The notes under the pieces were generated by a model that saw only the letters and a program-made list of their open reading frames with translations, was not told where the DNA came from and did not search any database. DNA of 64,000 nt. Origin: Vibrio sp. SS-MA-C1-2. Its GTDB lineage: Bacteria; Pseudomonadota; Gammaproteobacteria; Enterobacterales; Vibrionaceae. Within the stretch, counting starts at the first letter, position 1; each line of letters opens with the position of its first letter. Both the position numbers and the translations under genes were made by a program. This document shows, in pieces, positions 10,871-64,000 of this stretch. The stretch covers positions 975,958 through 1,039,957 of the forward strand of contig NZ_CP090980.1 of assembly GCF_021513135.1 (NCBI RefSeq), read 5' to 3'.

Positions 10871-10897
10871 GCTGGAAAGTGATATTTTTCAATAAAA

Positions 10898-10944
10898 GCA
10901 GTCTTGATAAGAGCGGTTATACTCTTATTAATACTGCTTTTTTT
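10898..10944 (+). terminator. Terminator after yajD
   Basis: Two nested stems (AGCAGT/ACTGCT outside and ATAAGAG/CTCTTAT inside) are followed by a run of seven T. Confidence 0.75.
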
Positions 10945-10963
10945 ATGATATTTACGATACTTT

Positions 10964-11048
10964 TACCCTCTTCTTACTTGACGTCGCTAGGTTGTTGCTG
11001 CACTTATTCACTTGCTGTCTACTAGAAACCCAGATTACATTGGATATA
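10964..11048 (+). repeat. ERIC-like element, decayed, internally deleted
   Basis: About 85 bp with recognisable arms (gtcgctaggttgttg and a diverged tactagaaaccc end). It lacks the central stem-loop. Confidence 0.65.
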
Positions 11049-11568: not shown

Positions 11569-11590
11569 ACATCTATTCAACTATTGGCGT

Positions 11591-11604
11591 GTCATTTAGA
11601 TCAA
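11591..11604 (+). promoter_or_regulatory. Weak FNR-like box upstream of PFOR
   Basis: gtcatttagatcaa matches 8 of the 10 fixed bases of the FNR consensus TTGATnnnnATCAA. The gene it precedes is for an oxygen-sensitive anaerobic enzyme. Confidence 0.35.
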
Positions 11605-11781
11605 AGCCATAAGCAAATAACATGTTGATAATCAAATATATTGTCATCATTTATTCTGCTTTTTTGCGCTTTATCAATTATGGTAGAACGTTAGTGCTCA
11701 AATTTATATGCCTTTCAATTTCAAATTATAAAGGTATCGCTATCGAATCTGCCTTTCGTCTATGTAAAGGAGATTACAATA

Positions 11782-14700
11782 ATGGTTTCAATTTTATCCT
11801 CAGAACAGAATGGTAATGCAACTCCCGCTTATCCGGGAATGAATATGGTTATGCATGGGAATGGTGCTGTTGCTCATGTGATGGAACATGTCTGCGGTGG
11901 GGTAATCGGATACCCAATCACGCCTTCGACTGAAATCGCAGAGATCTATGAAGCATTTAGAGCCCAAGGCGGGTGCAATGTATGGGATCAACACTCATTC
12001 TTTTTCGAACCTGAAGGGGAACACTCCGCGCAAAGTGGTGCATTAGGTGCCGTTTTAACGGGGGGAAATACATTTCAAATGCCTCATCAAGTCAAGGGAT
12101 TCTCTATGCCCTTGAATCTCACTATGTGACGGTAGGTAAAAAAGCCGCTGGATTTGTATTACACGTTGCTGCACGTTCTGTTTCTCGTCACTCTTTAAAT
12201 GTGATGGCCGGTCATGATGATGTTTATGCATTATTATCAGCAGGCTATACCACCTTATTTGGAAGTAATGCTCAAGAAGCGGCAGATTTAGCGGCCATCT
12301 CTTATCGTGTCAGTGCGCTTTCGTTGATCCCAGTGGCGAATACCATGGATGGTTTTGCAACCAGTCATATTCAGAGTGAAGTCAAACTTCCTGAACCTGA
12401 GTTGTTGAAAGAGTACATCGGTGATCCCGCAGAGCGTATCGTTGCACCAACAGAAGCACAGAAGATGCTGTATGGCGCAAAAGGACGAGTTTGGCACTTA
12501 ACACAATTTATTGAGAAAAATCGAGACCAGATTTGGCAGGAACAATTTGCGAATTTAGAACAGTTCTTATCAAATCAAGAAGAAAAGATTGAGAAAGACA
12601 CTCAAGGTGAATTATTAGCATCAACTTATGCAATGTTGCCTGAATTGCTCCATGGAAAGTGGCGTCGAGCTTGGTTAAACGCTTATGAAAAAGGGACGCG
12701 TCAACGAGTTCCAGCGTTAGTGGATGTAAATAACCCAGGTTTAACCGGGGGAGTTCAAAATCAACCCGATTATCAAGCGGGTATTGTCGATCATCGAACT
12801 CACTTTATGGCTGATGTGCCTCGTTTTGTTCAACAAGCTATGGATGATTATACAGAGTTAACTGGGCGTCAGTATCAACCTGTCATGGAGTTTATGTGCG
12901 ATGATGCTGAAGAGGTGGTCATCGGGTTAGGCTCTGTCACCGATGATGCAGAAGTGGTTGCGCAATACCTTCGTACTCAAGGTAAAAAAGTGGGTGTTAT
13001 CTCTATTAAGTTACTTTATCCATTCCCTGAAAAAGAGCTGGTGGAGTCATTGCAAGGCAAAAAAGTTGTCACTGTATTAGAGCGTTGTGATGAAACCCGT
13101 TTAACAGAAAAAGTGACAAGAGCATTATTTAAAGCACGAGAAAATCACTTGAAAGCAACAGAATATCACTTAGATATTCCAGCGATGCGTGATCTGCCAA
13201 TTATCTGTACGGGTGTATTTGGTTTAGGTGGCCATGATTTACAGCCTCGCCATTTAGTGGCTGCGTTCGAAAATATGAGCGATGAAAATTGTAAGCCTTT
13301 CTATTATGTTGGTACTCAATTTTTCTCGGCTGATAAACCATTAAGTGACGTTGAACAGCGTTTACAAGCAGCGTATCCAGAAACACAATTAATGGCGTTA
13401 GAAACGAAAGAGAACCCACATTTATTACCTGAAGATGCAATGAGAATTAGATTCCATTCAGTCGGTGGATATGGAACGATTGCAACAGGGAAATTATTGA
13501 CTGATATTTTATCTGGTGTGTTAAGTCTACACTCAAAATCAATGCCAAAATATGGTTCAGAGAAGAGTGGTGCGCCGACCAATTTCTTTATTACGTTATC
13601 TCCAGAGCCAATTAAACTAACCAATGCCGAGCTACAACAGGTTGAAGTGGTATTGTCTCCTGACCATAAAGTCTTTATGCATACCGATCCATTAGCGGGC
13701 TTAGAAAAAGGCGGTACGTTTATCTTACAAAGCTCTAGTAGTTCAGAAGAAGTTTGGCAAAGCTTACCAAGAGCAGCACGTGCTTATATTCGAGAAAATC
13801 AGATCAAATTCTATATTGTTGATGCCTTTAAAGTGGCGAAACAGCATGCACCAAGTCCTGAGTTAGAGATCCGTATGATGGGTATCGCCTTTATTGGAGC
13901 ATTATGCGGTAATGTGAAGCAGATTAAGAGTGAAGATAAAGATCAAGTCTTAGCAAGAATTCGTCAGCAGATTGAATATAAATTTGGTGCAAAAGGGGAG
14001 AAAGTGATTGAAGGTAATATGTCGGTTATTATTGACGGTATTGCTGCAACACAACCTGTTGATTACCTCAAGTTCCCTGCGGTTTATGCCAATGAGAGCA
14101 GTGAAAGTGCAACGATTGCGGCTAAGCCGACTTCTGCAAGTTGCGGTCTTTTTGACGCAGAATATTTTGATAATATCGCAGGACAATATTACGCAGATGG
14201 AACCATTGGTGAGGCACCGGTTATTCCAGGCTCTGGCATGTTTATTCCACCATCAAGCGCAATCACTAAGAATAAGGGAATATTCCGCTTGAATGTACCT
14301 GAGTTTGATGCCCAAAAATGTACTGGTTGTATGGAGTGTTCGCTGGCTTGTCCTGATGGTGCGATGCCAAATGCGGTTCATGACTTGACGGATATTCTTT
14401 CTACCGCCATCAAGCAAGTTAACCTACCAATGGGTATTCAAGAGCAGCTTAGTCGAATGGTTCCACAAATCAGCGATGAAGTTCGTCATATTTATCGTCA
14501 AGTCGGTAAAGGTGATGCGCCATTATTGCACCAAGCCGTCACTCAAGCTGTGGATGCCTTGCCACAAACAGAGCAAGTATTACAACAACCTTTAGCCGCA
14601 CTTTGTGTGGTGGTTGAAAACTTACCGATGAGTAAAACTAAACCGTTCTTTGACGCGATGGAGAAGCATCGCCCAGGTTCAGGTGGCCTATTCTCGGTTG

Positions 14701-16811
14701 CGGTTGATTCAACCAAATGTAGCGGTTGTATGGAGTGTGTCGAAGTCTGTGGCCCTAATGCACTGAAGAAAACGGTACAAACCAATGAATTAACTCAAAA
14801 AATGAAGTATCAGTTTGAGTTTATTAATAAAATGGAAAAAACCCCGATTCGCTTTATTGATGGCGCGATTGAATCTGCTCAAGAAGCTAAGCGAATTCTA
14901 CTTGATCGAGACCATTATAATGCAATGGGATCAGGTCATGGTGCATGTCGTGGTTGTGGTGAGGTGACTGTACTTCGTTTGGTCTCTTCGATTAACCGTG
15001 CAATTAAGCAGAACAGCTATCAAGCTCATAGTCAGCAGTTAGAAACGTTAATTGATAAGTTAAATAGTAAGTTATCTCAGCAAGATTTGGTGAACAGTGA
15101 TCCAACTAGAGCCGCGCGTATTACTCAAACGCTGGCTCAGTTAGAAAAACGCCTGTATGAATTTGAGTTTGGTCCTACGGGTGAAGGTCGTGCCAATGCG
15201 ATGATCGCCAATGCGACGGGATGTAGTAGTGTTTATGCGTCAACATTCCCTGCTAATCCATATCAAGAACCTTGGATCAACAGCCTATTCCAAGATACGC
15301 CTGCATTAGCAAAAGGTATTTTTGAAGGTGAAATGGCCAATCAATTGGTTCAGATCCGTGCTCTACATACAGCACAATTGGAAGTTGAAGATCTTTATCA
15401 GCCAGAGGCTCATGATAACCAATTACGCTATTTAGACTGGACACAATTAAGCGATAAAGAGTTATCACTGATGCCCGCTATTTTAAGTATTGGTGGTGAT
15501 GGTGCGGTTTATGATATCGGTTTTGGTGCGCTATCTCGTGTGCTTTCTACTCGTACACCCATGAAAATATTAGTCTTAAATACCGGTAGTTACTCAAATA
15601 CGGGAGGACAAGCATCGACGGCAAGTTTTACCGCACAAGACTCAGATTTAAGTCGCTTTGGTAAAGTGCATAGTGGTAAGCAAGAGGAGCGTAAAGAGTT
15701 AGGATTGATTGCAACCTTCCATCCTAAAGTGTTTGTTGCCCAAAGTACCACCGCGCTACAAGGACACTTTATGTCGAGTGTCATTGAGTACTTAAACTAT
15801 CAAGATTCACCGGCCTTACTTGATGTCTATACGCCTTGTATGGGTGAGCATGGTATTGCCGATGATATGAGTACCAAACATGCTCGTTTAGCCCTTGAAA
15901 GTAGAATGAGTCCTGTTTTTGTTCATGATCCTCGTCAAGGCGAAACCTTAACTGAGCGTTTTTCTATTGAAGGGAACCCTGAGTTGACTCAAGATTGGAC
16001 AAGCCAAACCATTAGCTTTGTTGACCAAGATGGTATGACACAACTGAAAGAATGTAGCTTTACGCCTGCTGATTTTGCGCTGTATGAGGGACGCTTTGCA
16101 AAACACTTCAAAGTTGCAACAGAGCAACAAAGCCTAATCTCGGTGCCAGAATATTTGGCAATGAGTGACAGTGATCGTTACAGCCATACGCCATTTATAT
16201 GGGCGACCAATAAGAAGAATCAACTTATTCAATTGACGGTGTCTGAGTCGATTATTGCGCTATGTGAAGAGCGCCTTAAGAATTGGCATATGTTGCAGTA
16301 TTTGAGTGGTCAAGAGAACATTGCAATGGAACGTGGTTATCAGCAGCAAATTACTGATTTAGAACAACGTTACCAAGCGTCTCAAGCTGATAAAGAGCAG
16401 ACGATTGATGATATTGCCAATGGTTTAGCTGAATTGGCATTAACATCGGATGTTTTTGCTGGTGGTGATTTTGTGAGTTCTAGTCACAATATCCCTGTCA
16501 AACAGGTTGAATCCTCAGTAACAACAAGCTCTGCGCCAATATCAACCGATACTCAACCATTAGTGAATATTGCGGAAGAAAATATCAGTCAATGTACCGA
16601 TTGTAAAACCTGCTATCAGCAATTGGGCGAGCTGTTTGAAAAAGTGACGATTGTTGATGATGGACAGCCTAAAGTTGTCAGTAAAGTGATTGAAAACGCA
16701 TTATCTACGGTATCAATAACACCTGAACTCATCGATCGAGCAGAACGAATTGCCGATGAGTGTGATGCAGAGATCATCGAATTCTGTGCACCGAAAGTCA
16801 CGGAGGCATAA
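11782..16811 (+). CDS. Pyruvate:ferredoxin (flavodoxin) oxidoreductase, frameshifted at a G run
   Basis: Oxidises pyruvate with CoA to acetyl-CoA, CO2 and reduced ferredoxin. The frame from 11782 ends in TGA at 12129, but an adjacent frame continues the same protein. One extra base at the run of six G (12060-12065) gives GGKYISNASSSQG and joins the pieces into 1676 codons. Order: POR N-terminal domain; gamma-type domain with FHSVGGYGTIATGK; two 4Fe-4S motifs, CTGCMECSLACP at about 846 and CSGCMECVEVCG at about 979; TPP domain with GHGACRGCGE and GGDGAVYDIG at about 1238; and an extra C-terminal part with CTDCKTCY at about 1604. Usual PFORs are near 1170-1200 residues. The AAAGGAGA site supports the ATG at 11782. 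It is followed by the Nfn-type gene after one base. Confidence 0.85.
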
Positions 16812-16812
16812 A

Positions 16813-19617
16813 ATGAATATGACGTTATCTCAAGCTCAGCAAGATCTGCTATTACGATCTGCAGAGCAACAATCAAGAAAATACAGCAACTTATTAGCCA
16901 AGCAGAGTATGGAGTTGATTCAAAAAACTTTGAAAAAAGGTGATTTGAGTGAAAATTTTATTACCGGTTTATGGAATGCTTTGCTAGAAGATAACCCGTT
17001 GAGTCAGGTACTTCAACGTTATCTATGGCGTGTGCCTCTAAAGCAGAAGCGTCATTTTATCCGCGGTATAGATCAGCACTTATCTGAGCGCTACCCAATG
17101 TTTAAAGGGCTATCAAAAGGGTGGCCAGGAAGTAATAATATTCCACCTTATGTCCGTCCTGCTGAAGAGCGTAATCGTGATTTCGATTTAGTGAGTCAAG
17201 GTTATTTAGGGTATATGGGGTTAGGCTATAGCCTGCGTGAGGTTGAACTGTTTGTTTGGTTAGAAGTGATTCGCGATAAGCAGTGTGAAGATCGCCCTTG
17301 TGAAATTGGTGCGCCTTTATGTAACGATAAAGGGGAAGAGACCAATGAAATGGATGGTGGGTGTCCTGTAAAAATTCATATTCCTGAAGTGCTTGATCTT
17401 ATGGGAGATGGAAAATTAAAAGAGGCGTTTGAGTTGATTCAGAGCGCAAACCCTCTTCCTAATGTGACAGGACGTGTTTGTCCTCAAGAGTTACAGTGCC
17501 AAGGTGTTTGTACTCATAACGATCGCCCGATTGAAATTGGGCAGTTAGAGTGGTTCTTGCCTCAATATGACAAACTAAGTTCGAAAGAAGAGAGTGATGC
17601 GGGTAAACAACGTCGTCTTGATAAGAAAAATTGCTTGCCTAATCCTTGGGCTGTCGCTAATAAAGCGCCGATTGCGATCGTCGGATCTGGGCCTTCTGGA
17701 TTGATCAATGCCTACTTATTAGCGAAGGAAGGTTACCCTGTCACGGTGTTTGAAGCGTTCCATGCTTTAGGTGGTGTATTACGCTATGGTATTCCTGAGT
17801 TTAGATTACCAAATAGCTTGATTGATGATGTTGTCGAGAAGATCCGCCAATTAGGTGGACGCTTTGTCACCAACTATATTGTTGGCAAAACAGCAACATT
17901 GGATGATCTTAAAAAAGCAGGCTTTGCAAAGATCTTTATCGGTACAGGGGCCGGGTTACCGCGCTTTATGAATGTACCCGGTGAACATTTAGTTAATATC
18001 ATGTCGGCTAATGAATTTTTGACGCGAGTTAACTTAATGCATGCCAACCTGCCCGATTACGAGACACCATTACCTGCAGTTAAAGGTAAGCAAGTGATGG
18101 TGATTGGTGGAGGTAATACCGCGATGGATGCCGCCCGTACCGCTTGTCGTTTAGGTGCTGAAGTGACCATCGTTTACCGTCGAACTAAGCAAGAGATGCC
18201 GGCTCGAGTTGAGGAGCTACATCATGCGTTAGAAGAAGGCATTAACGTTTGCGAGCTACGATCACCAAGTGAATTCTTAGGGGATAAAAATCATCACCTC
18301 AACGGTGTTAAAGTCGAAGTGATGGCATTGGGAGAGGCGGATAGTTCTGGCCGTCGTCGTCCCGTTGCAACTGGTGAGGTTGAACACCTTCCTGTTGACT
18401 TAGCCATTATGGCATTAGGTAATAACGCCAATCCTATTGTTAAAGATTCAGAACCCAAACTGACGACATCTAAATGGGGAACATTACTGGTTAATAATGA
18501 CTCCCAAGAAACATCGATTGATGATGTCTATAGTGGTGGTGATGCAACACGAGGTGGATCTACGGCGATTAAAGCCGCGGGAGATGGACAAGCGGCCGCA
18601 AAAGAGATCATGTCGACCCTTGATCTTAATCCAAGCCAAATTAAGCAGCTGGTGGCGAGTGCAGATAAATATACATCCATTGGTCAAACTAAGCCGACAA
18701 TTGTTAAAAGACGTCAACTTACTGATGAGATCGTAGAGTTGACTATCACTGCACCTTTAATTGCTCAGTCAGCCAAAGCTGGGCAGTTTGTTCGCGTGTT
18801 AGCAGATGAAAAAGGCGAGCTTATTCCATTGACCTTAGCGGACTGGAATGCAGAGCAAGGAACGATTGAGCTGGTTATTCAAGGTTTGGGTACGAGTTCA
18901 AAACTGATAAATCAAATGCAAGTCGGTGATGAGTTCTGTGCGATTGGTGGTCCATTGGGGCAGCAAAGTGCGGTACATAAATACCCTCAGAATACAAGGA
19001 TTGTCTTTACTGCGGGGGGTGTTGGTCTACCTGCCGTTCATCCTATTCTTTGTGCTCACTTAGCTATCGGAAACAATGTTACCTTGATTTCAGGGTTTAG
19101 AAGTCAAGAGAACAGCTTCTGGGTTGCAAAAGATGAGCGTATTGAAGCGTTAAAACAACAATACCCTGATACATTAGACGTTATCTACACCAGTAATGAT
19201 GGTTCATTGGGTATTGAGGGCTTTGTTACCACACCATTAGAGTCAATGTTAAAGTTGTCGCAACAGAAGGTGAAAGAGAGCGAAGCTCACTCTTCATTAG
19301 ATAATTCAGATATTATTGCGGAAGTGGTGACGATTGGTCCTCCATTGATGATGCGTGCCGTGAGTGACTTAACCAAAGAGTATGACACTTATTGTGTGGC
19401 AAGCTTAAACTCAATTATGGTTGACGCAACGGGTATGTGTGGAGCCTGTATGGTGCCAGTGATGGTCGATGGTAAACTGGTGCGGAAGCATGCTTGTATT
19501 GATGGCCCTGAACTAGATAGCCATTCCATTGAATGGGATAAATTTTTACCAAGATTTACTCAATTCAAACCACAAGAGTATCAAAGCCAGATTGAACATA
19601 AGTTGATTGAGGCTTGA
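16813..19617 (+). CDS. Fused NfnB-NfnA-type NAD(P)H:ferredoxin oxidoreductase
   Basis: 934 residues. About 1-130 is a helical region with no assigned function. About 130-280 carries a cysteine-rich Fer4_20-type region (CPVKIHIPEVL, VCPQELQCQGVC). An FAD motif IVGSGPSGL at about 286 and an NAD(P) motif VIGGGNTAMDAAR at about 429 match glutamate synthase small subunits. From about 640 an FNR-like module follows (GQFVRVL, TAGGVGLPAVHP), ending in GMCGACMVPV at about 873 for a 2Fe-2S centre. Two NfnAB subunits are thus in one chain, in B-then-A order. It should pass electrons between the PFOR ferredoxin and NADP. CGGAGG lies just before 16813, so the longer frame from 16750, inside PFOR, is rejected. 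Confidence 0.85.
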   Translation: MNMTLSQAQQDLLLRSAEQQSRKYSNLLAKQSMELIQKTLKKGDLSENFITGLWNALLEDNPLSQVLQRYLWRVPLKQKRHFIRGIDQHLSERYPMFKGLSKGWPGSNNIPPYVRPAEERNRDFDLVSQGYLGYMGLGYSLREVELFVWLEVIRDKQCEDRPCEIGAPLCNDKGEETNEMDGGCPVKIHIPEVLDLMGDGKLKEAFELIQSANPLPNVTGRVCPQELQCQGVCTHNDRPIEIGQLEWFLPQYDKLSSKEESDAGKQRRLDKKNCLPNPWAVANKAPIAIVGSGPSGLINAYLLAKEGYPVTVFEAFHALGGVLRYGIPEFRLPNSLIDDVVEKIRQLGGRFVTNYIVGKTATLDDLKKAGFAKIFIGTGAGLPRFMNVPGEHLVNIMSANEFLTRVNLMHANLPDYETPLPAVKGKQVMVIGGGNTAMDAARTACRLGAEVTIVYRRTKQEMPARVEELHHALEEGINVCELRSPSEFLGDKNHHLNGVKVEVMALGEADSSGRRRPVATGEVEHLPVDLAIMALGNNANPIVKDSEPKLTTSKWGTLLVNNDSQETSIDDVYSGGDATRGGSTAIKAAGDGQAAAKEIMSTLDLNPSQIKQLVASADKYTSIGQTKPTIVKRRQLTDEIVELTITAPLIAQSAKAGQFVRVLADEKGELIPLTLADWNAEQGTIELVIQGLGTSSKLINQMQVGDEFCAIGGPLGQQSAVHKYPQNTRIVFTAGGVGLPAVHPILCAHLAIGNNVTLISGFRSQENSFWVAKDERIEALKQQYPDTLDVIYTSNDGSLGIEGFVTTPLESMLKLSQQKVKESEAHSSLDNSDIIAEVVTIGPPLMMRAVSDLTKEYDTYCVASLNSIMVDATGMCGACMVPVMVDGKLVRKHACIDGPELDSHSIEWDKFLPRFTQFKPQEYQSQIEHKLIEA

Positions 19618-53562: not shown

Positions 53563-54105
53563 ATGAATATTAAAGATATAGTATTGATCTCTCTTTTCGC
53601 TGCCATCATAGCAATATTGGCTATCTTTCCGCCAATAACATTACCCATTATCCCTGCACCGATTACCGCTCAAACCTTGGGGGTTCTATTGGCGGGTGGA
53701 ATTTTAGGATGGAAGCGTGGGTTTTTATCTATTTCGTTGTTTCTATTCTTAGTGTTTATCGGTTTACCTTTATTACCTGGGGGCAATGGTGGCATTGGCG
53801 TTTTCTTTGGCCTAACTGGCGGTTTCTTAATTAGCTGGCCTTTTGCTGCGTTACTGATGGGATGGCTGGTAGAAAAAAATTGGGATTCATTAAATGCAAC
53901 CAAAGTGTTTATTAGTTGCTTAATCAGTGGTATTGGTTTGATTAACGCAATTGGCGTCCCCTGGTTAGCTTATATGGCTAATATATCATTAGTTGAAGCG
54001 TTTACGGGTTCAATGGTGTTTATTATTGGTGGTGTGATTAAATGCATCATTGCCACTAGTGTCATCATGACAGTTTCACGATCTTATCCTGTTTTATGCC
54101 GTTAG
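53563..54105 (+). CDS. bioY: Biotin transporter S component BioY
   Basis: 180 residues and about six hydrophobic segments. The family pattern PPITLPIIPAPITAQTLGVLLAG and LPLLPGGNGGIGVFFGLTGG is distinctive of BioY, which binds biotin at the membrane. It heads bioYMN. Confidence 0.9.
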   Translation: MNIKDIVLISLFAAIIAILAIFPPITLPIIPAPITAQTLGVLLAGGILGWKRGFLSISLFLFLVFIGLPLLPGGNGGIGVFFGLTGGFLISWPFAALLMGWLVEKNWDSLNATKVFISCLISGIGLINAIGVPWLAYMANISLVEAFTGSMVFIIGGVIKCIIATSVIMTVSRSYPVLCR

Positions 54106-54134
54106 TTTAAAAGAATAAGTTTAAAAGAATAAAA

Positions 54135-54806
54135 ATGATAACTTGTAAAAACGTCACATTAATAAAAGATAATCACACTATTCTTTCTGATATTTCAGTT
54201 AATTTAACTGCAAAAAGAATAGGTATTATTGGCCACAATGGCAGTGGAAAAACTACGTTTAGTAAACTGTTAAATGGATTAGAAATACCAACGTCCGGAG
54301 AGGTGTCACTATTTAATCAAGAGATGGAGCCGATTGAAAAACAGCAACATGTGGGTTTTGTATTTCAAAATCCAGATAACCAAATTATCTTTCCCATTGT
54401 AGAGGAAGACATTGGATTTGGGCTGACTCAACTGGGCTTACCCAAAAAAGAGATTCAACAGCGAGTCGAAGATTTTCTTAATAAGTTTAATTTAGGTCAT
54501 TTAAAACAACGTTTAACTCATCAATTAAGTGGTGGGGAAAAGCAGTTAATTGCACTGATTGGTGTGTTAATTATGCAACCTGAATACATTATTCTTGATG
54601 AACCGACGACATTGTTGGATTTAAAGAATCGCTTAGCATTGATTGAAATACTAAATGATCTTCAACAAAAACTGATTATTGTGAGCCATGATTTAGAATT
54701 GATGTCACAGATGGATCAATTAATTCTTTTTCATAGTGGATCGATTGTTGATAGCGGTGAACCGACCCGTATTCTTACTAAATATCAGGAACTATCAAGG
54801 TGTTAA
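54135..54806 (+). CDS. bioM: Biotin ECF transporter ATPase BioM
   Basis: 223 residues: Walker A GHNGSGKTT, Q-loop region FQNPDNQIIFPIVEEDIGFG, signature LSGGEKQLIALIG, Walker B IILDEPTT and switch SHDLE. The ATPase of the BioYMN energy-coupling-factor transporter. It overlaps bioN by seven bases. Confidence 0.9.
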   Translation: MITCKNVTLIKDNHTILSDISVNLTAKRIGIIGHNGSGKTTFSKLLNGLEIPTSGEVSLFNQEMEPIEKQQHVGFVFQNPDNQIIFPIVEEDIGFGLTQLGLPKKEIQQRVEDFLNKFNLGHLKQRLTHQLSGGEKQLIALIGVLIMQPEYIILDEPTTLLDLKNRLALIEILNDLQQKLIIVSHDLELMSQMDQLILFHSGSIVDSGEPTRILTKYQELSRC

Positions 54807-55429
54807 TTTCAATTTATAGCCAGCGTCAAAGCTGTATTCATCGTTTATCTGCAGCGATAAAATTAATGGCTTTAACTATAATTTGTACAATGGTATTTAT
54901 TTTTGGTGGCTGGAAAATTTTAACCATAACAACCTTTATGACTCTTTTGATGTATAGGTTGGCAAAAATAGAAATTAACACTCTTTTTAAGGCATTAAAG
55001 CCGGCATTGTGGCCTGTTTTATTCATTTTTGTTGCTCAATGTGTCATTAATAATTACACGATAGCGATATATACCATTATAAGATTGCTCGTTATTCTCT
55101 CTTTAGCTTCATTAGTGACATTCACAACGACCACTAACCAAATGCTCGGTTCGATTGAAAAAGGGTTAAGTTATGTTGTTAACACTGAAAGAGCGAAGAA
55201 AATTAGTTTAGCTATTTCATTAACTATCCGTTTTATTCCTAAAGTACGAGAAACCTATTTAGAGATTCAAGATGCTCAAAAGGCGCGAGGAGTTAAAAAT
55301 AATTGGTGGGCTTTAGCAACGGTGACCATAATTCGAGTATTAAAATCAGCAGATGACATTTCAGATGCTATTAATACTCGAAGTCGATTATTGAGCCAGA
55401 ATGACAAGTCAGTGGTAATGAGCAAGTAG
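54800..55429 (+). CDS. bioN: Biotin ECF transporter transmembrane component BioN
   Basis: 209 residues, hydrophobic, with EAxxxR-type coupling motif KARGVKN and RVLKSADDISDAINTRS towards the C-terminus. It forms the T component that couples the BioM ATPase to BioY. Confidence 0.85.
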   Translation: MLISIYSQRQSCIHRLSAAIKLMALTIICTMVFIFGGWKILTITTFMTLLMYRLAKIEINTLFKALKPALWPVLFIFVAQCVINNYTIAIYTIIRLLVILSLASLVTFTTTTNQMLGSIEKGLSYVVNTERAKKISLAISLTIRFIPKVRETYLEIQDAQKARGVKNNWWALATVTIIRVLKSADDISDAINTRSRLLSQNDKSVVMSK

Positions 55430-56866: not shown

Positions 56867-57186
56867 GAAAAATAAGATAAAAATAGAGAGTAATGGTAAA
56901 AGTAGAAATACTCAACAGGGTTTTATTTATCACTAGATATATTAATTATATCAAGATATCCCTGCCATCCTTGTTATTGTTAGGCCAATCAAGGTTAGGT
57001 TGATCGTTGTAACTGTTGTATTCATTTGCCTACTCGTAATGACGATTATTTTAGACATCAGTCATTAAGTAAAAAACTCCATTATGCAAACAGTTGAACT
57101 TTTTTGTGTGCTAGCTCACAAAAATGTTAAATGAATGTTATATTTTATTTATGGGTTAAAAATTATTGATAAATGGAGTGTGATTA
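56867..57186. other. Intergenic region upstream of the sensor gene
   Basis: 320 bases. A decayed ERIC-type trace lies at about 57000-57062. The CRP site and promoter at 57105-57144 are listed separately. Nothing else is seen. Confidence 0.4.
57105..57120 (+). promoter_or_regulatory. CRP site upstream of the sensor/MFS/binding-protein module
   Basis: tgtgtgctagctcaca matches TGTGA N6 TCACA at nine of ten fixed positions, embedded in a longer palindrome (TTTTTGTG..CACAAAAA). A TATATT-like -10 follows at 57139-57144, so CRP would act at or near class II position. It lies 67 bases before the first gene. Confidence 0.7.
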
Positions 57187-57987
57187 TTGAGAGCTTTTTT
57201 AGATGTTCATTTTAAGCTAGTCGTAGCGGTTTGGTTTATCCTATTTTCAGTATTAAGCCTGCTCTGTTTAATTAATTTTATTAAGTTTGATAACTTAATG
57301 TCTCAGGTTATTTCATCAAAACTAGATGTCGTGGTGACCTCTTTAAATAGTTCAATTAAGCGTGTTGAGCGCTTAGGAATGTCATTAGATTCTTCACAAA
57401 ATTTATTAACATCTATGGAGTCAGCACTGAATCGAAACCCTAATATTAAATCGATTATTGTGACAGACAGTCAAGGAAAAATTGTTCTATCAAGCGCTAG
57501 CCTTTCAAATCTTAATAATGCAGATACGAACTCCGTCAGCATAGACAGTAAAGTGATAAAAAAGTCCGTCACTACACAAGATGAAACTTGGCTTGTTACT
57601 CAGGGCGAACAGATCATTATAGGAAAAACATTATTTAATAATTTTTCTGAAAAAAGTGGCTCAATCATTATTGATTATGATAAATCGTCGCTCTTTTCGC
57701 TCTTTTCTTTAGTTAAATATCACTTGATACAGATGACATTAGCGATCTTTTTAGCCATTTCTCTTTTAGCTTTTTTAGTTATTCGTATTTCATTTAATGA
57801 CATTACTCAAGTTATTCGCTTTATCCAAACGTATACGATTAACCGAAAAAATCATCATAAAATGGAGTTGAATAATAGCCAATCAAGCTATATCGCTGAA
57901 AAAATAACCCACAGTGAACAGATGAGAATAAAAGCAAAAACTGAATTAAAAAATATAAAACATCAAATCAGTCAAACATCAAAATAG
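57187..57987 (+). CDS. Membrane sensor-like protein without an output domain
   Basis: 266 residues, started by TTG behind TGGAG. Transmembrane segment about 10-32 (LVVAVWFILFSVLSLLCLINF), a periplasmic part about 33-175 with a PAS/Cache-like pattern (SIIVTDSQGKIVLSS), a second span about 178-200 (MTLAIFLAISLLAFLVI), and a short polar, Lys-rich tail of about 65 residues. No kinase, GGDEF or methyl-accepting part follows, so it seems to sense and pass the signal to a partner, most likely the MFS fusion just downstream (12 bases). The periplasmic-domain call is from topology and pattern. Confidence 0.7.
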   Translation: MRAFLDVHFKLVVAVWFILFSVLSLLCLINFIKFDNLMSQVISSKLDVVVTSLNSSIKRVERLGMSLDSSQNLLTSMESALNRNPNIKSIIVTDSQGKIVLSSASLSNLNNADTNSVSIDSKVIKKSVTTQDETWLVTQGEQIIIGKTLFNNFSEKSGSIIIDYDKSSLFSLFSLVKYHLIQMTLAIFLAISLLAFLVIRISFNDITQVIRFIQTYTINRKNHHKMELNNSQSSYIAEKITHSEQMRIKAKTELKNIKHQISQTSK

Positions 57988-57999
57988 TCATGGTATTGA

Positions 58000-60123
58000 A
58001 TGAGCAAATTAAAAAGTCTTTCAAAAGTTATTAATAAGCGCCTCATCACAATCACGGTGATAAGTACACTATTAGCAACCATTTTAAGTTCACTTTACAC
58101 ACTAGTAGAGTTCAATTATGCGATTAAACCTGAATTGGTTCGTAAAACTGATGCTATTGGACAAGTGATTGTTGATGATCTCAATATCGCCTTAGAGGCG
58201 GGAATACCTCTGAATAAAATTAGAGGGATGGATATATATCTTCAAGAAAATTTGGATAAGTACCCTGAATTAAATTTTATAGCAGTGAGTTCGAATCGTG
58301 AAGTATTGTTCCATGCAGGCATAGTAGAAGATCTTACTGTGCCGGTAATTAATAGTCATTCGTTGCACAGTGAACCTTTTCTTCATGATACGTTATGGCA
58401 GCGTATTGAGCAGTCGGTTAGTACCCTCTATCATTTAATTGAGAGTAATTATGACAGCAATGCAAATAGAAGTGACATTTTAAAGATAGATATACCATCT
58501 AGCCTACAGCTTGGTAGTGCAGTCTATTTAGGGCTTGATAAACAATTTATACAACTTCAACTCACTGATATTTTCTTCGATATTGGTGTTATTTTAATTG
58601 CCGTTTTATTGATTTGCTTTGAAGTGATATTAGTGCTCATTATGCTCTATATCTCTAAACCTTTAGAGGAGTCGGAGCAAACATTAGAGCGGCATGCCAA
58701 TGGTGATTTTTCTGTTTCAGATACCCCGCATCAACATGGCATCATCGGTCGCTTTTCTGCCAGTTTAAATAAAGATTCACAAAAATTACAGAATGAGTTT
58801 CAACAAATTGAATCTGCGCAACATGGCTTAAGTGAAAAGAGTCAGCAACAATTACATGCGATTTCATCAAAATATCATTTAAATCAGAAGATTAAACATG
58901 TGGGGGAAGTGATAGACGTTCGGATCCCATTATTTATTTTTTCATTTGCAGAAGAATTACAGAAATCATTTATGCCTCTTTATATTGATGAACTTTATAC
59001 GCCAATCTGGGGGTTATCTCGTGATGTTATTTTAGGGTTACCTATTTCTATCTTTATGTTGGTTATTGCTTTAATAACTCCCTTTTCTGCTAAATGGGTT
59101 GATCGCCTAGGTCAACGACAATGTTTTATATGGGGATTAATTCCAGCGATCTTAGGCTATTTAGGGTGTGCTTTTGCCACCAATAGCACAGATATTATTA
59201 TCTCTAGAGGCATTACGGCTATTGGGTACGCGATTATATTAATGAGTAGCCAAAGTTATATTGCGGCGGTTATTACTGCGGATAATCGGGCCAAAGGGAT
59301 GTCTATCTTTGTTGGAATATTAATGACGGCAACGATGTGTGGAACCGCATTGGGTGGCATTATCGCTGACAGAATAGGGTATTCACCGGTATTTCTGATC
59401 TCGACTGGATTAGCTGTTGTAGCGGGGATTTTAACTTGGTTTATGTTTTCGAAAGATCTTAATAATCAGTCTGGAAAACAGTCGAATAACAAAAGTAATC
59501 AACGTAGCAATACCTTGACTCAAATTCTAAAAAATCGTCGCTTTGTCACCATCGTGCTTTGTGGCGCAATTCCAACCAAAATTGTATTAACCGGCTTTCT
59601 CTATTTTATGGTTCCATTATTTTTAGTCTCGTTAGATTCCAGTCAAGCTGAGATTGGACGTGTAATGATGGTCTATTCTCTGCTAATCATTCCATTTAGC
59701 CCTATTGCTTCAGGAATCGCCGATAGGTTAAACAAATCACGTGAGCTGGTGGTTTTAGGAACAATTTTATCTGGTGCTGTCCTTATCTCTCTTTATGGTG
59801 AAGCATCGATATTAAAAGTCACATTGGCCGTAGGTTTAATGGGGGTCGCGCATGCTATTTTGAAAGCCCCCCTAATCGCTTGTGCTTTGGAAGCGGCAGA
59901 AAAAAGTCCAGAAGTACCGAGAACAGAAGTTTTAGCTCTTTTGAGAACAGCCGAAAGAGCAGGCAGTGTTTTTGGACCGATTATTGTGGCAGGACTAATA
60001 TCAGTTTATAGCTATGGGGTCTCGATGGCCATCATGGGGATGGGGATCATGCTTTCTGGTATTGTAATGTTGTTATTATTGAATAGACGTAAAATTCCAC
60101 AGCATCAAGGAGAGCGATCATGA
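58000..60123 (+). CDS. Sensor-HAMP-MFS fusion transporter
   Basis: 707 residues. One hydrophobic span about 14-36, a periplasmic domain about 37-185 (DLNIALEAGIPLNKI, FIAVSSNREVLFH), a second span about 190-218 and a HAMP-like helix after it (KPLEESEQTLERHANGDF). After a polar linker, about 300-700 is a 12-helix major facilitator region: the motif AKWVDRLGQRQCF at about 364 matches MFS motif A, and a second copy occurs as ASGIADRLNKSRELV. A signal-sensing head joined to a transporter is unusual. The stop overlaps the binding-protein start (ATGA). Function unknown; a regulated importer or exporter is inferred. Confidence 0.75.
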   Translation: MSKLKSLSKVINKRLITITVISTLLATILSSLYTLVEFNYAIKPELVRKTDAIGQVIVDDLNIALEAGIPLNKIRGMDIYLQENLDKYPELNFIAVSSNREVLFHAGIVEDLTVPVINSHSLHSEPFLHDTLWQRIEQSVSTLYHLIESNYDSNANRSDILKIDIPSSLQLGSAVYLGLDKQFIQLQLTDIFFDIGVILIAVLLICFEVILVLIMLYISKPLEESEQTLERHANGDFSVSDTPHQHGIIGRFSASLNKDSQKLQNEFQQIESAQHGLSEKSQQQLHAISSKYHLNQKIKHVGEVIDVRIPLFIFSFAEELQKSFMPLYIDELYTPIWGLSRDVILGLPISIFMLVIALITPFSAKWVDRLGQRQCFIWGLIPAILGYLGCAFATNSTDIIISRGITAIGYAIILMSSQSYIAAVITADNRAKGMSIFVGILMTATMCGTALGGIIADRIGYSPVFLISTGLAVVAGILTWFMFSKDLNNQSGKQSNNKSNQRSNTLTQILKNRRFVTIVLCGAIPTKIVLTGFLYFMVPLFLVSLDSSQAEIGRVMMVYSLLIIPFSPIASGIADRLNKSRELVVLGTILSGAVLISLYGEASILKVTLAVGLMGVAHAILKAPLIACALEAAEKSPEVPRTEVLALLRTAERAGSVFGPIIVAGLISVYSYGVSMAIMGMGIMLSGIVMLLLLNRRKIPQHQGERS

Positions 60124-61181
60124 GTATTATCTCTAATTATTTGCGAATATTAATCTATAACTCTCTTCTTTTTCTGTCTATGTTGAGTTTCAACTCGATA
60201 GCCGAAAACTCGTCTTTTTATTCCGTTGAACACAACCTGAATGGAGAAGCTCGGCAACAGGTTATTATGGTGACGTGGCGAGGTTGTGAAGAGGCGTGTT
60301 TAGGTTTCAAGTCTTACCTACAGAAGAGAGGTTATCCTATTGATGTGTCTGTTATTGATGTCGCTCGAGATAAACGTCGATTAAAGACATTGCCCAACCA
60401 ACTAAAACGGTTAAACCCTGATCTTGTCGTGACTTGGGGCACCAGTGTCAGTAAAGCGTTAATTGGCAGTGTTGATCAATATGGCAAAAGTAGTGTATTG
60501 GGCGATATACCCACCTTATTTATGATTGTCGCTGATCCATTAGGTGCAGGAATTATTACTGATGGTGCAGCCTCAGGGCGTGACAACGTCACAGGCGTTC
60601 GAAATCGTATCAGTGAAGATGTCCAGATTCGGGCGATGCGTGAATATATTCCTGTTCATAAAATTGGTGTTATCTATTCTGATGCCGAGCTTAACTCAGT
60701 CCTAAATGCAAAACGGTTGAAAAACCTTGCTAGCAAAATGAAGTTTGATCTTGTAGAGCTACATTATCAACTAGATAGCACGGGTAAACCTATAGCGAAT
60801 CAATTTGATCTTAAAATTAGAGAATTAGCCGATCGTGGTGTAGATTTTATTTATGTGGGATCAAGTTCATATAATTTAGCTCATCGAGATCAGTTTACAC
60901 AAACGGCCTTAACATATGGGATCCCTGTAGCCAGTGCTTATGAGGCGATGGTATCGAAATCATCAGCATTAATGTCTGTTTCCAATAAATATTTTCAAGT
61001 TGGAGAGTTGGCGGCAAATCAAGCTGTAAAAATATTGATCGAAAAAGAGCAACCAGGTTCTCTGAATATTGCAGAGTTAGGCAGCTATTCAGTATCTATT
61101 AACATGTCTGTTGCACAATCACTCTCACTCTACCCACCCATACAGCTAATTAGAATAGCCAATTTAATTAAGGTGAAATAG
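60120..61181 (+). CDS. ABC-type periplasmic substrate-binding protein (PF04392-like)
   Basis: 353 residues. The N-terminus includes a signal-like hydrophobic segment (ILIYNSLLFLSMLSFNSIAE). The body has the type I bilobed pattern with PDLVVTWGTSVSKALIG, HKIGVIYSDAELNSVLNAKRL and VDFIYVGSSSYNLAHR, near TrpX/ABC_sub_bind proteins. Its partner transporter is not an ABC but the MFS fusion directly upstream, with which it overlaps by four bases. It is probably the ligand receptor of the module. The ligand is unknown. Confidence 0.8.
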   Translation: MSIISNYLRILIYNSLLFLSMLSFNSIAENSSFYSVEHNLNGEARQQVIMVTWRGCEEACLGFKSYLQKRGYPIDVSVIDVARDKRRLKTLPNQLKRLNPDLVVTWGTSVSKALIGSVDQYGKSSVLGDIPTLFMIVADPLGAGIITDGAASGRDNVTGVRNRISEDVQIRAMREYIPVHKIGVIYSDAELNSVLNAKRLKNLASKMKFDLVELHYQLDSTGKPIANQFDLKIRELADRGVDFIYVGSSSYNLAHRDQFTQTALTYGIPVASAYEAMVSKSSALMSVSNKYFQVGELAANQAVKILIEKEQPGSLNIAELGSYSVSINMSVAQSLSLYPPIQLIRIANLIKVK

Positions 61182-61244
61182 CGTCATTATAAGGTAGATA
61201 AAAAGGGATTGGATCAGAGGTGAGTAGGAAAAAAGAGGCAAATT

Positions 61245-63308
61245 ATGAATGAGTTATTAGAGTTAAGTGGTAGTTACTTAACGGTCAAGGATGCAAATAA
61301 CAAAGAGTATGTTGCATCAAAATTAAAGGTGATGGAAGCATTAAACGGTGACTATCAATGGACTGTCTCTGCAATGAGTTCCTCAGCCAGTGCTGCCGAT
61401 TGGATAGGTCAACAAATTACCACGGATGTTTATGATCTTTTGGGTGATGATCGGAAAGGTTGCCGCCAATACTCTGGTTATGTCGTCAAAGCGGAACGAG
61501 AATCTGACCATACAGAGAAAGGCTACTATTCTATTAGGTTAACCGTAAAGCCATGGTTCTATCTATTAAAATATTCTAAGTCCTCAAGGGTTTTTCAAGA
61601 ATTAAGTGTACAGTCCATTGTTACTTCTATTTTTGATGATTTGGGTTTTAAAGGGTGCTATCAAGTTTCAAGCATGCCAACAACGAAAAGAACCTATTGT
61701 ATTCAATTTAACGAGAGTGATTTTGATTTTGTGACTCGATTATTGTCAGAAGAAGGTGTTCACTTTTACTTTGGCAAAAATGATAAAAATGAGACGTTAT
61801 ACCTACAGACAGCAACCAACCCTTTCTCTAAGGATGGACTGACGACATTAGACTCTATTACTTCTCCGACTGGAGAGTATGAAATCTTAGATAGTTGGGA
61901 ACCTCAACATCAATTTCATACCGCTTCTGTGGAGTTAACAGCCTATGATTATAATCAAAGTAAATTGGTAACCAGTAAAACTCAGAAGTCTAAATATAGT
62001 TTATCAGGGAATAGCAAGCTCACTCAAACACATTACCCCGTTGCCAGTTTATCTCAAAGTTATGATGATTTAGCAAAACCGTTAGCACAGACTGCCATTG
62101 GACAAAATGATTCTAACTACAGCTTAATTAATGCAACTACACAAAGTTATCAATTGGTTGCGGGCGCTTATATTACCTTGAATAGCCATTTTAATTCAGC
62201 AGATAAGGGGAATTATATCGTCATCGCGGTGCAGTATGAATTTTCCTCTGACTCTGATAATCAATTTACGACTTCAGCCTCTCTTACTGCTATCCCAGAA
62301 GATCAAGTTTTCTATCCTGATCCTAAAAGTAAACCCACTTTGCATGGGCTTCAATCAGCTGTTGTCGCAGGCACGACGGCAGGTGAACCCGCAAGTGACA
62401 AAATGGGCAGAGTTCGAATTAAATTTCATTGGGATAGTGAAACCGGCGATAAAACGAGTTGTTGGGTAAGGGTGGCACAAGGAATGTCAGGAAAAAGCTA
62501 CGGTTCTCAATTTTTACCTAGGGCGGGGCAAGAAGTGTTAGTGAGCTTTATTGATGGTGATCCAGATAGACCTGTCGTCGTGTCTTCACTTTATAATAGT
62601 CAAAATCCGCCTCCTTATGTGACTGAAAATACGACCCAAAGCGGGATAAAAACCAAATTAAGTGGTGAATCGAATGAGTTGAGGTTCGATGACAAGAAAG
62701 ACAATGAAGAACTGTATCTCAAAGCCGCAAAAGATTTTAATACTGAAGTGTTAAATAATGAAACCAAGACTGTCGCCGGTGATTCTACCGTTGCGATAAC
62801 CAAAAACCTCACACATACCATTGATGAGACCTGTAATTTAACTGCAAAAAAAGACATTACTATTGCGACTGATACGAATCACACCTTAACCGCGACCGAG
62901 TCTATAACAGAAAAAACCAAAACTGTGTTGGTTGAAGGGAGTGAAACCATTACTTTAAAAGTTGGAGACAGTAAATTGGTGATTTCATCATCGAAAATAG
63001 AACTTTCGAGTTCTGAAATAGCCATCTCAGGAAGCTCTAAAATATCCCTTGATGGAGGTTCGATATCACAATCAGGTTCATCGATTAGCCTCTCTTCTGA
63101 CGGCTCATTAAGTGCGAAAGCAGGTTCATCGATGTCACTTTCTGCTTCAAGTAGTTTTAGCGCAAAAGGAACCAGTGGAGCAACGATAAAAGGGTTGAAT
63201 GTCACGGTTCAAGGCGATGTTGGTGCGACTCTAAAGGGAAGTGCTACTGCAGAAGTGAGTGCCAGTGGTCAAACCACAGTGAAAGGCGCGATTGTAATGG
63301 TGAATTAA
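61245..63308 (+). CDS. vgrG: Type VI secretion spike protein VgrG
   Basis: 687 residues. N-terminal gp27-like region (ELSVQSIVTSIFDDLGF, YCIQFNESDFDFVTRLLSEEG), then the gp5/OB region (GRVRIKFHWD, SCWVRVAQGMSGKSYGSQF, GQEVLVSFIDGDPDRPVV). The end of about 150 residues is a Ser/Gly-rich beta-helix with short repeats (ISGSSKISLDGG, SISLSSDG), forming the spike needle. No extra effector domain follows. It is contiguous with the DUF6931-like gene (no gap) and a PAAR gene. Confidence 0.95.
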   Translation: MNELLELSGSYLTVKDANNKEYVASKLKVMEALNGDYQWTVSAMSSSASAADWIGQQITTDVYDLLGDDRKGCRQYSGYVVKAERESDHTEKGYYSIRLTVKPWFYLLKYSKSSRVFQELSVQSIVTSIFDDLGFKGCYQVSSMPTTKRTYCIQFNESDFDFVTRLLSEEGVHFYFGKNDKNETLYLQTATNPFSKDGLTTLDSITSPTGEYEILDSWEPQHQFHTASVELTAYDYNQSKLVTSKTQKSKYSLSGNSKLTQTHYPVASLSQSYDDLAKPLAQTAIGQNDSNYSLINATTQSYQLVAGAYITLNSHFNSADKGNYIVIAVQYEFSSDSDNQFTTSASLTAIPEDQVFYPDPKSKPTLHGLQSAVVAGTTAGEPASDKMGRVRIKFHWDSETGDKTSCWVRVAQGMSGKSYGSQFLPRAGQEVLVSFIDGDPDRPVVVSSLYNSQNPPPYVTENTTQSGIKTKLSGESNELRFDDKKDNEELYLKAAKDFNTEVLNNETKTVAGDSTVAITKNLTHTIDETCNLTAKKDITIATDTNHTLTATESITEKTKTVLVEGSETITLKVGDSKLVISSSKIELSSSEIAISGSSKISLDGGSISQSGSSISLSSDGSLSAKAGSSMSLSASSSFSAKGTSGATIKGLNVTVQGDVGATLKGSATAEVSASGQTTVKGAIVMVN

Positions 63309-63872
63309 ATGAAAAAAATGCCTTATAAAAATAGTGTGTCAATTTGTTCTCGATTTGAATTTTCAGAGGATGCGGCAATGGTTGTCGATGTTGAATCTTT
63401 ACCAGAAGCCGTAATGAAAAAACTTTTTGAAAGCCAGCAATATATTGATTTAATGCACTTTATTGCACATGCATTACCAATGAGAGAGTCAATTTGGTTT
63501 GCAGCAAAAGCCTTGAAATTAAGAGAGAATGATTGGTCTCAACAAGAAGTTAATACCTTAAATCAAGTCATGCAATGGATTATGGAACCGAATGAAACCT
63601 TGCGACGTCAGATCGAGTCTCAAATTTTAGTCTATGCTGAAACTAGTGCCGCAAAATGGCTAGGACAAGCTGTTGTTTGGAGTGGAACTGGAAGCATTGC
63701 ACCGATAGATAGCCCAATGGTTATGCCCGCTGACTTTCTTTATGCGAAAGCTGTCGCGGGAGCTGTTAATACCGCCGCTGTATTACCCGAGTGGCAAGGG
63801 CGAGAAAAATATTATACATCGACCTTCGATATCGCGTTAGATATCTCAAAGGGTGGATCAGGAAATATTTAA
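63309..63872 (+). CDS. DUF6931-family T6SS-associated protein
   Basis: 187 residues, start directly after the vgrG stop. The pattern SAAKWLGQAVVWSGTGSIAP then KAVAGAVNTAAVLP matches DUF6931, small proteins encoded between VgrG and PAAR genes. It has no signal or membrane segment. A role in loading cargo or stabilising the VgrG-PAAR complex is a guess from position. Confidence 0.75.
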   Translation: MKKMPYKNSVSICSRFEFSEDAAMVVDVESLPEAVMKKLFESQQYIDLMHFIAHALPMRESIWFAAKALKLRENDWSQQEVNTLNQVMQWIMEPNETLRRQIESQILVYAETSAAKWLGQAVVWSGTGSIAPIDSPMVMPADFLYAKAVAGAVNTAAVLPEWQGREKYYTSTFDIALDISKGGSGNI

Positions 63873-63883
63873 AAGGAGCCGCT

Positions 63884-64000
63884 ATGCCATGTGCTGCGAG
63901 ATTAACTGATATGCATACTTGTCCGATGCAAACCCCGGGCACACCTCCCATCCCTCATGTTGGCGGCCCGATTGTTGGTCCTGGCGCTGTGACGGTTTTA
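63884..64000 (+). CDS. PAAR-domain T6SS spike tip protein, partial at window end
   Basis: The first 39 codons. MPCAARLTDMHTCPMQTPGTP and PHVGGPIVGPG are the PAAR opening. AAAGGAG precedes the ATG. PAAR proteins cap the VgrG spike. Whether it carries a toxin extension cannot be seen here. Confidence 0.85.
   Translation, partial: MPCAARLTDMHTCPMQTPGTPPIPHVGGPIVGPGAVTVL

What the first reader, a model, noticed from the sequence alone, without database searches (positions are those of the whole stretch)
57105..61181. Sensor, sensor-HAMP-MFS fusion and PF04392 binding protein as one CRP-controlled module
Three overlapping or near-touching genes encode a two-span membrane sensor with no output domain, a 707-residue protein that joins a periplasmic sensor and HAMP-like helix to a 12-helix MFS transporter, and a periplasmic binding protein of ABC type but with no ABC genes. 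An excellent CRP site precedes them. The combination suggests a transporter whose activity is gated by a sensed ligand, handed over by the binding protein. I know of no characterised system of this form.
Basis: partly seen in the sequence, partly recalled or inferred. Interest (0 to 1): 0.78.

Follow-up and report, generated by a model that had tools for sequence, protein, structure and literature searches.

The report
Sensor–transporter trigger for type VI secretion
Next to the genes for a bacterial injection machine (the type VI secretion system) sits a conserved unit made of a free-standing sensor, a second sensor welded to a membrane transporter, and a binding protein; it likely senses something outside the cell and would tell the machine when to assemble.

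Summary
The window stops at the end of a circular contig; read across that end, the genes head a type VI secretion (T6SS) cluster. In 150 Vibrionaceae genomes, 36 of 37 relatives of the 707-residue protein lie within 19 kb of TssK; the 37th is at a contig edge. They accompany one TssK class only: 0 of 81 high-scoring TssK rows, 39 of 56 low-scoring ones. Of 67 sampled occurrences, 63 have a PF04392-like gene within 3 kb. Fusions join sensor 1 to the MFS protein, and the MFS protein to the binding protein. Both sensors are predicted Cache-like; the transporter has a VMAT/NorA-type fold. Outside Vibrionaceae, 14 of 26 genomes have SpoIIE/STAS/HATPase genes nearby, five have T6SS genes and one a T3SS. 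Best reading: a binding-protein, Cache and MFS receptor that gates secretion-system assembly. Linkage is shown; gating, ligand and output are inferred. CRP control is not supported. In this genome six T6SS genes are split, so the machine may be decaying. Single annotations are in print; eight searches found no description of the module.

The parts
57105..57120 (+). CRP-like palindrome (one core mismatch); not conserved, not beyond chance
57187..57987 (+). S1: free-standing two-span sensor, predicted TM - single Cache domain - TM - cytoplasmic helix, no output domain found, 266 aa, TTG start
58000..58698 (+). N-terminal sensor of the 707-aa protein (residues 1-233): TM helix, Cache-like domain, TM helix; related to S1
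   Evidence: AF2 model; an S1 profile matches 117 of the 120 listed MFS homologues (this protein is one of the three misses), 0 of 120 after shuffling or reversing the N-terminus
58645..58815 (+). HAMP-like helix pair (residues about 216-272) between sensor and transporter
   Evidence: predicted helices only; Pfam HAMP weak in relatives, absent here
58912..60084 (+). 12-helix MFS domain (residues 305-695), VMAT/NorA/MdfA-like fold
58000..60123 (+). Whole sensor-MFS fusion gene, 707 aa
60120..61181 (+). PF04392 (ABC_sub_bind) binding protein with an apparent signal peptide (by eye), 353 aa
   Evidence: 94.6 bits, cut-off 25.9; closest solved relatives 3lkv, 6hni, 3lft
61245..63308 (+). T6SS VgrG/TssI
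   Evidence: NCBIfam TIGR03361 1.3e-119
63309..63872 (+). DUF6931-like gene of the T6SS cluster (50% identical to the relative that matches PF22011)
63884..64000 (+). First part of the PAAR gene; its remainder is at the start of the same circular contig (L032)

Best explanation
The three genes stand at the head of a type VI secretion gene cluster and likely form one envelope receptor for it, in which the periplasmic binding protein would dock on Cache sensor domains that are predicted to switch the fused transporter and so set when the secretion machine assembles. Shown here: T6SS linkage, co-occurrence of the parts, two kinds of fusion, and relatedness of the two sensor types in the family. 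Predicted: the Cache and MFS folds. Inferred: (1) the PF04392 protein, perhaps with the SBP_bac_3-like protein encoded between clpV and fha, captures a small ligand from outside or from a damaged envelope; (2) the loaded protein docks on the Cache domains of S1 and of the MFS fusion, as LuxP does on LuxQ; (3) TM2 and the HAMP-like helices pass the change to the MFS domain, which works as a transceptor (a transporter fold used to signal) and may or may not still move the ligand; (4) in Vibrionaceae the output is the mostly soluble Ser/Thr kinase and FHA protein of the same operon, where other T6SSs use a membrane-spanning PpkA fed by TagQRST; (5) in many genomes outside Vibrionaceae the same receptor feeds SpoIIE/HATPase/STAS partner switches instead.
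For: T6SS linkage: 36 of 37 Vibrionaceae hits (39 of 40 with three clade-iii hits found later) within 19 kb of TssK; the one miss is at a contig edge. TssK class: 0 of 81 rows at 400 bits or more, 39 of 56 rows below. Unit: 63 of 67 sampled occurrences have a PF04392-like gene within 3 kb; three misses are contig edges, one is an MFS protein of about 500 aa, too short for the sensor. Fusions: MFS+PF04392 in P0087 and P0113; S1+MFS in clade ii, where residues 13-200 match S1. Sensors: S1 model closest among crystal structures to WalK, and LuxQ, DcuS, DctB and CitA periplasmic domains also appear. Operon partners: FHA and protein kinases in all 7 clusters tested, 6 without a hydrophobic span. 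Other outputs: SpoIIE/HATPase_c_2/STAS hits near the module in 14 of 26 non-Vibrionaceae genomes and 1 of 8 plasmid records (families checked by Pfam in two loci); G782 and G551 have partner-switch and T6SS genes at one locus; G391 has SpoIIE and HATPase genes and a T3SS. T6SSs of the same TssK class without the module exist and look unbroken in the stretch fetched (L118, L119), which fits a regulator rather than a structural part.
Against: No expression, binding or secretion data. The MFS domain keeps motif A and buried charges in clade i, so it may simply transport. The same T6SS class persists without the module. In this genome TssC, the second TssC, TssF, FHA, TssL and TssM are split in several frames, so the machine may be dying while the module is intact. 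In clade i the module sits beside VgrG, not beside fha. HAMP is not recognised by Pfam in this protein. The S1 profile does not reach E 0.01 on this protein's own N-terminus. S1 was not detected by tblastn beside clade iii, nor in 11 of 26 other genomes, some of them at contig edges or in GC-rich loci. Several relatives have neither secretion nor partner-switch genes in the stretch fetched (G497, G440, G629, G668 and two Azospirillum plasmids). One kinase of seven has a hydrophobic span. The V. fluvialis homologous cluster was barely transcribed under the conditions tested (PMC5371669, passages).
Confidence: 0.55

Rival explanations
1. A true transport system in the service of the T6SS: the binding protein captures a compound released by lysed prey or host cells and the sensor-gated MFS moves it; linkage reflects shared expression, not signalling.
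For: The MFS fold is complete and its top fold neighbours are H+-coupled antiporters. Motif A is kept in clades i and ii, and charged residues E318, R403, K527, D575 and R649-E652-R653 are invariant or nearly so over 30 proteins. Two binding proteins of different families accompany it.
Against: Motif A is degenerate in clade iii although the linkage persists. Partner-switching genes near the module outside Vibrionaceae point to signalling. Fused Cache domains are not needed for transport. The top fold neighbours are mainly exporters, which do not use binding proteins.
Confidence: 0.22
2. An autocrine loop: an ATP-grasp or glutamate-cysteine-ligase-like enzyme makes a small amide, the MFS exports it, and the binding proteins and Cache domains read it back to judge crowding or enclosure.
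For: A Dala_Dala_lig_C/ATP-grasp gene directly precedes the clade-iii MFS gene (Pfam; 17 of 17 clade-iii Vibrionaceae genomes sampled, and G440 and G668). A GCS2-like gene adjoins it in G551, G679 and Aureimonas AU20. The MFS fold resembles exporters.
Against: No such ligase hit in clade i (the window's clade) or clade ii in the stretches examined, many of which are only about 4 kb.
Confidence: 0.1
3. A neighbour without function in secretion: a mobile sensor-transporter operon that happens to sit beside T6SS genes.
For: Some T6SS clusters of the same class lack it, one with only a remnant left. Relatives occur without T6SS or partner-switch genes in the stretch fetched (G497, G440, G629, G668, two Azospirillum plasmids).
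Against: 36 of 37 linkage, at two different positions inside the T6SS operon, in three diverged clades.
Confidence: 0.07
4. One reading: a CRP-controlled, ligand-gated transporter unrelated to secretion.
For: A CRP-like palindrome ends 66 bases before the first start codon.
Against: Site frequency is at chance level and the site is not conserved; T6SS linkage.
Confidence: 0.04

Closest known systems
LuxP-LuxQ (Vibrio quorum sensing; also NspS-MbaA, recalled)
   Same: A periplasmic binding protein paired with a membrane Cache-type sensor; LuxQ periplasmic-domain entries are among the fold neighbours of S1.
   Different: LuxQ carries its own kinase (recalled); here one sensor has no output domain and the other is fused to an MFS transporter. 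Docking is not shown.
TagQRST-PpkA-PppA-Fha threonine phosphorylation pathway of T6SS (PMC10482370, passages)
   Same: Envelope input in a T6SS operon that also holds a Ser/Thr kinase and an FHA protein.
   Different: The kinases of the seven clusters checked are short and six have no predicted span. TagQRST and PppA were not searched for by profile.
MFS transceptors and sensors (UhpC, yeast Snf3/Rgt2; recalled)
   Same: An MFS fold used, or proposed here to be used, as a receptor.
   Different: None recalled with a fused periplasmic Cache-HAMP unit and a dedicated binding protein.
RsbU/RsbV/RsbW-type partner switching; Bordetella BtrUVW control of T3SS (recalled)
   Same: Outside Vibrionaceae the module often adjoins SpoIIE, STAS or HATPase_c_2 genes, in G391 beside a T3SS.
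   Different: None of 33 sampled Vibrionaceae loci showed these genes, many of those stretches being only about 4 kb.
TrpX/PF04392 binding proteins with ABC partners
   Same: Same Pfam family.
   Different: No ABC partner seen here; the TrpX equivalog cut-off is not reached (92.2 of 390 bits).
VflT6SS1 of V. fluvialis (PMC5371669, passages) and Vibrio sp. J383 Table 5 (PMC10385127, passages)
   Same: Both papers list an MFS transporter and an ABC-type gene next to or inside such a T6SS cluster.
   Different: In the passages seen they are treated as flanking or unexplained genes; no module or function is proposed there.

Membership tests
Major facilitator superfamily | PF07690 over its curated cut-off and 12-helix fold | tested here: met
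PF04392 ABC_sub_bind | Profile over cut-off | tested here: met
   94.6 bits against 25.9
TrpX tryptophan binding protein (NF041285) | Equivalog cut-off | tested here: not met
   92.2 bits against 390
ABC importer | Permease and ATPase genes with the binding protein | tested here: not met
   None from 57187 to 63872 or in the T6SS cluster as read by eye; the ECF genes at 54135-55429 are a separate operon
Cache sensor domain | PAS-like alpha/beta fold between two TM helices | tested here: met
Cache sensor domain | Pfam Cache profile over cut-off | tested here: not met
   dCache_1 20.7 bits against 45 in S1
HAMP domain | Pfam HAMP or a parallel helix pair after TM2 | tested here: inconclusive
   No Pfam hit in this protein; 3 of 34 relatives weak; predicted helices at 181-233 and 247-272
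T6SS threonine phosphorylation pathway | FHA protein in the operon | tested here: met
   PF00498 in L042; the own copy is split
T6SS threonine phosphorylation pathway | PpkA-type kinase with TM and periplasmic part | tested here: not met
   Pkinase present in 7 of 7, but 6 of 7, this genome's included, lack a predicted span
T6SS threonine phosphorylation pathway | TagQ, TagR, TagS, TagT and PppA | not tested
   No profile searches were run for these
LuxPQ-type receptor | Binding protein docks on the Cache sensor | not testable with these tools
   No complex prediction available
LuxPQ-type receptor | Sensor carries a kinase domain | tested here: not met
   No kinase domain found in S1 or the MFS fusion

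The most novel reading that the evidence does not exclude
A new class of receptor: an MFS transporter turned into a signalling switch by a fused Cache-HAMP unit and fed by its own binding proteins, used across Proteobacteria as an interchangeable trigger for contact-dependent weapons, wired to kinase/FHA control in T6SS clusters of Vibrionaceae and to SpoIIE partner switches beside T6SS and T3SS clusters elsewhere.
Probability: 0.35. Interest if true: 0.88.

Novelty: new variant of a known kind. Interest (0 to 1): 0.72.

Why it matters
What makes many T6SSs fire is unknown. Here is a compact set of periplasmic and membrane proteins genetically tied to one T6SS lineage of marine bacteria. It is present in plasmid-borne T6SS clusters of V. 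crassostreae and V. europaeus, presumably the systems of which PMC12824646 (passage) says that the V. crassostreae one triggers cytotoxicity in oyster haemocytes. Its ligand can be sought with purified binding proteins. If the gating reading holds, it would show how a transporter fold can be turned into a signal receptor and swapped between a kinase/FHA output and a partner-switching output.

Tried and rejected
CRP control: tested by pattern search and by looking upstream of five relatives; rejected as unsupported.

ABC importer with missing partners: no ABC genes seen in the module or T6SS cluster; rejected.

Simple HAMP call: Pfam does not support it for this protein; kept only as a predicted helix pair.

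A close-relative scan of genome contigs with the MFS protein gave 26 pattern matches and no confirmed relative. A protein search with S1 found only itself; S1 relatives came from genome neighbourhoods instead.

The first S1 profile held wrong-frame reads; I dropped four rows (L101, L106, L107 and the second L056 row) and redid it with 13.

A survey of 321 Gammaproteobacteria-level (own class) genomes found 3 beyond this genome at 1e-40 (G908, G994, G1063): one beside VgrG, two on short contigs.

Whether the split T6SS genes are decay or assembly error was not settled: ORF statistics on five control stretches of the same genome were uninformative, while the two longest window ORFs (1561 and 955 aa) match long families over much of their length. 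The VIA-align list for the MFS model covers residues 295-701 only, so it does not test the sensor part. The clade-iii query was run only in 18 chosen genomes, so clade-iii copies elsewhere may be under-counted.

Literature: eight searches found no paper that describes the module; subscription papers are not in the library. Papers were seen as search listings and passages only, none read whole.

Full report
1. What is there. Three genes on the + strand: S1 (57187-57987, 266 aa, TTG start), a 707-residue sensor-MFS fusion (58000-60123), and a 353-residue binding protein with an apparent signal peptide (60120-61181), with a 12-base gap and a 4-base overlap. Pfam finds MFS_1 at 3e-48 and PF04392 at 8.5e-27. 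S1 has only a sub-threshold Cache match, and NCBIfam adds a sub-threshold ZraS sensor match.

2. The window is the last 64 kb of contig C1 (1,039,957 bases). VgrG and a DUF6931-like gene follow the module, then the first part of a PAAR gene. The rest of that PAAR gene begins at base 2 of the same contig, so the contig is circular. From there follow a 338-aa gene, TssA, Hcp, TssB, TssC, a second TssC-like gene, TssE, TssF, TssG, ClpV, an SBP_bac_3-like binding protein, FHA, TssJ, TssK, TssL, TssM and a protein kinase. The three genes are the head of a T6SS cluster.

3. Conservation in Vibrionaceae. Of 150 genomes, 36 have a relative of the MFS fusion at 1e-20, 37 hits in all, this genome included. 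TssK (PF05936) was searched in the same 150 genomes and found in 94. 36 of 37 hits lie within 19 kb of a TssK; the exception sits at a contig edge. With three further clade-iii hits (18 chosen genomes) it is 39 of 40. TssK rows of 400 bits or more: 0 of 81 near the module; below 400 bits: 39 of 56, some of those rows being fragments of one gene or at contig edges. By a rough estimate of mine, a random gene would lie this close to a TssK in about one or two genomes in a hundred. Three clades exist. Clade i, as here: S1, MFS and PF04392 before VgrG. Clade ii: an MFS protein of about 855 aa, PF04392 and SBP_bac_3-like genes between clpV and fha. Clade iii: an ATP-grasp ligase-like gene, an MFS protein of about 735 aa, a PF04392-like and an SBP_bac_3-like gene at the same place. 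Annotated plasmid records of V. tubiashii, V. crassostreae and V. europaeus show the clade-iii order independently.

4. Loss of the module. In T6SS clusters of the same TssK class, L118 and L119 go straight from clpV to fha (no MFS fusion was found elsewhere in those two genomes), L120 keeps only a remnant of the ligase and SBP genes, and L123 and L124 keep only the SBP_bac_3-like gene. The module is therefore an accessory, not a part of the machine.

5. The parts belong together. In 63 of 67 sampled occurrences (33 Vibrionaceae genomes, 26 other genomes, 8 plasmid records) a PF04392-like gene lies within 3 kb of the MFS gene. Three misses are contig edges; one is an Azospirillum MFS gene of about 500 aa, too short to hold the sensor. 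Seven of the 40 Vibrionaceae hits had no locus and were not sampled. MFS and PF04392 are fused in P0087 and P0113. S1 and MFS are fused in clade ii: a profile of 13 S1 proteins matches residues 13-120 (E 5.6e-21) and 126-200 (E 6e-4) of the 850-aa protein and, weakly, its second sensor (E 6e-4). The same profile matches 117 of the 120 listed MFS homologues, and none of 120 after shuffling or reversing their N-terminal 300 residues. The window protein is one of the three misses.

7. Other contexts. Of 398 drawn from the phylum, 10 have it at 1e-20; of 321 of the window's class, 4 at 1e-40; this genome is counted in the last two. In 14 of 26 sampled genomes outside Vibrionaceae, and in Aureimonas AU20 (an alphaproteobacterium), SpoIIE, HATPase_c_2 or STAS hits lie in the stretch examined (families checked by Pfam for two loci). 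Five of the 26 have T6SS genes in the neighbourhood: G305, G782, G551 and G908 (G908 a VgrG only), and G572, where VgrG lies about 12 kb away. G782 and G551 have both partner-switch and T6SS genes. G391 adjoins a T3SS: SctU, SctT, SctR, SctN, SctV, SctC and SctQ each pass an NCBIfam T3SS cut-off. In Nitratidesulfovibrio vulgaris the module follows a gene annotated as a T3SS chaperone. Others with long stretches show neither (G497, G440, G629, G668 and two Azospirillum plasmids); five more lie on short contigs.

8. Mechanism. The best fit is a receptor: binding protein(s), Cache domains, HAMP-like helices, MFS domain, then a phosphorylation output. For T6SS the output is inferred to be the kinase (Pfam Pkinase in all 7 clusters tested; 6 without a hydrophobic span) and the FHA protein. 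The review PMC10482370 (passages) describes the corresponding step elsewhere as TagQRST to PpkA to Fha. None of the signalling steps is shown here.

9. Literature. PMC5371669 (passages) mentions an ABC-type periplasmic component and an MFS transporter at the left junction of VflT6SS1 as flanking genes, and reports very low mRNA for that cluster. PMC10385127 (passages) lists MFS transporter, ABC transporter protein, transporter protein and FHA between tssH and tssJ in Table 5. PMC12824646 (passage) relates the V. europaeus plasmid T6SS2 to the V. crassostreae plasmid T6SS that triggers cytotoxicity in oyster haemocytes. PMC9545535, PMC11371242 and PMC13098142 (passages) discuss other T6SSs; the words MFS and transporter do not occur in their text. 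No paper found describes the module.

10. Caveats. In this genome TssC, the second TssC, TssF, FHA, TssL and TssM appear in several frames. The module and VgrG are intact. The cause is unresolved. The CRP claim is not supported.

Noticed in passing
L032 3745-8862 and 13454-14453; L041 1913-6598: Six T6SS genes of this genome (TssC, second TssC, TssF, FHA, TssL, TssM) are each split over several frames while the upstream module and VgrG are intact; decay or assembly error not settled.
   Followed up: partly
L040 5458-6606 and other clade-iii loci; L077 11223-12794; L112 6686-8110: An ATP-grasp (Dala_Dala_lig_C) or glutamate-cysteine-ligase-like gene adjoins the MFS gene in clade iii and in some genomes outside Vibrionaceae, hinting at a small amide product linked to the module.
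   Followed up: partly
L056 12359-17299; L102, L103, L104, L111: A second S1-like gene and/or a weak second MFS-like stretch beside the SpoIIE phosphatase gene suggests a paired second sensor-MFS unit.
   Followed up: no
L075 (Nitratidesulfovibrio vulgaris plasmid) 10812-18876: CesT-family T3SS chaperone, PF04392 protein, MFS fusion and an SBP-type protein in one neighbourhood outside Pseudomonadota.
   Followed up: partly
L032 213-1229: A 338-aa gene after PAAR; its relative L034 16400-17461 has no Pfam family above cut-off; conserved in clade i, a possible cargo or adaptor.
   Followed up: no
L141 7870-17444: A genome of the same class (G908) with S1, MFS and PF04392 followed within 3 kb by a VgrG gene.
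   Followed up: partly
window 53563-55429: A BioY-like S component (by eye) with ECF ATPase and T-component genes, a separate operon upstream.
   Followed up: partly
window 12126-19617: A 1561-aa protein related to pyruvate:ferredoxin oxidoreductase overlaps a 955-aa glutamate-synthase-beta-type protein.
   Followed up: partly
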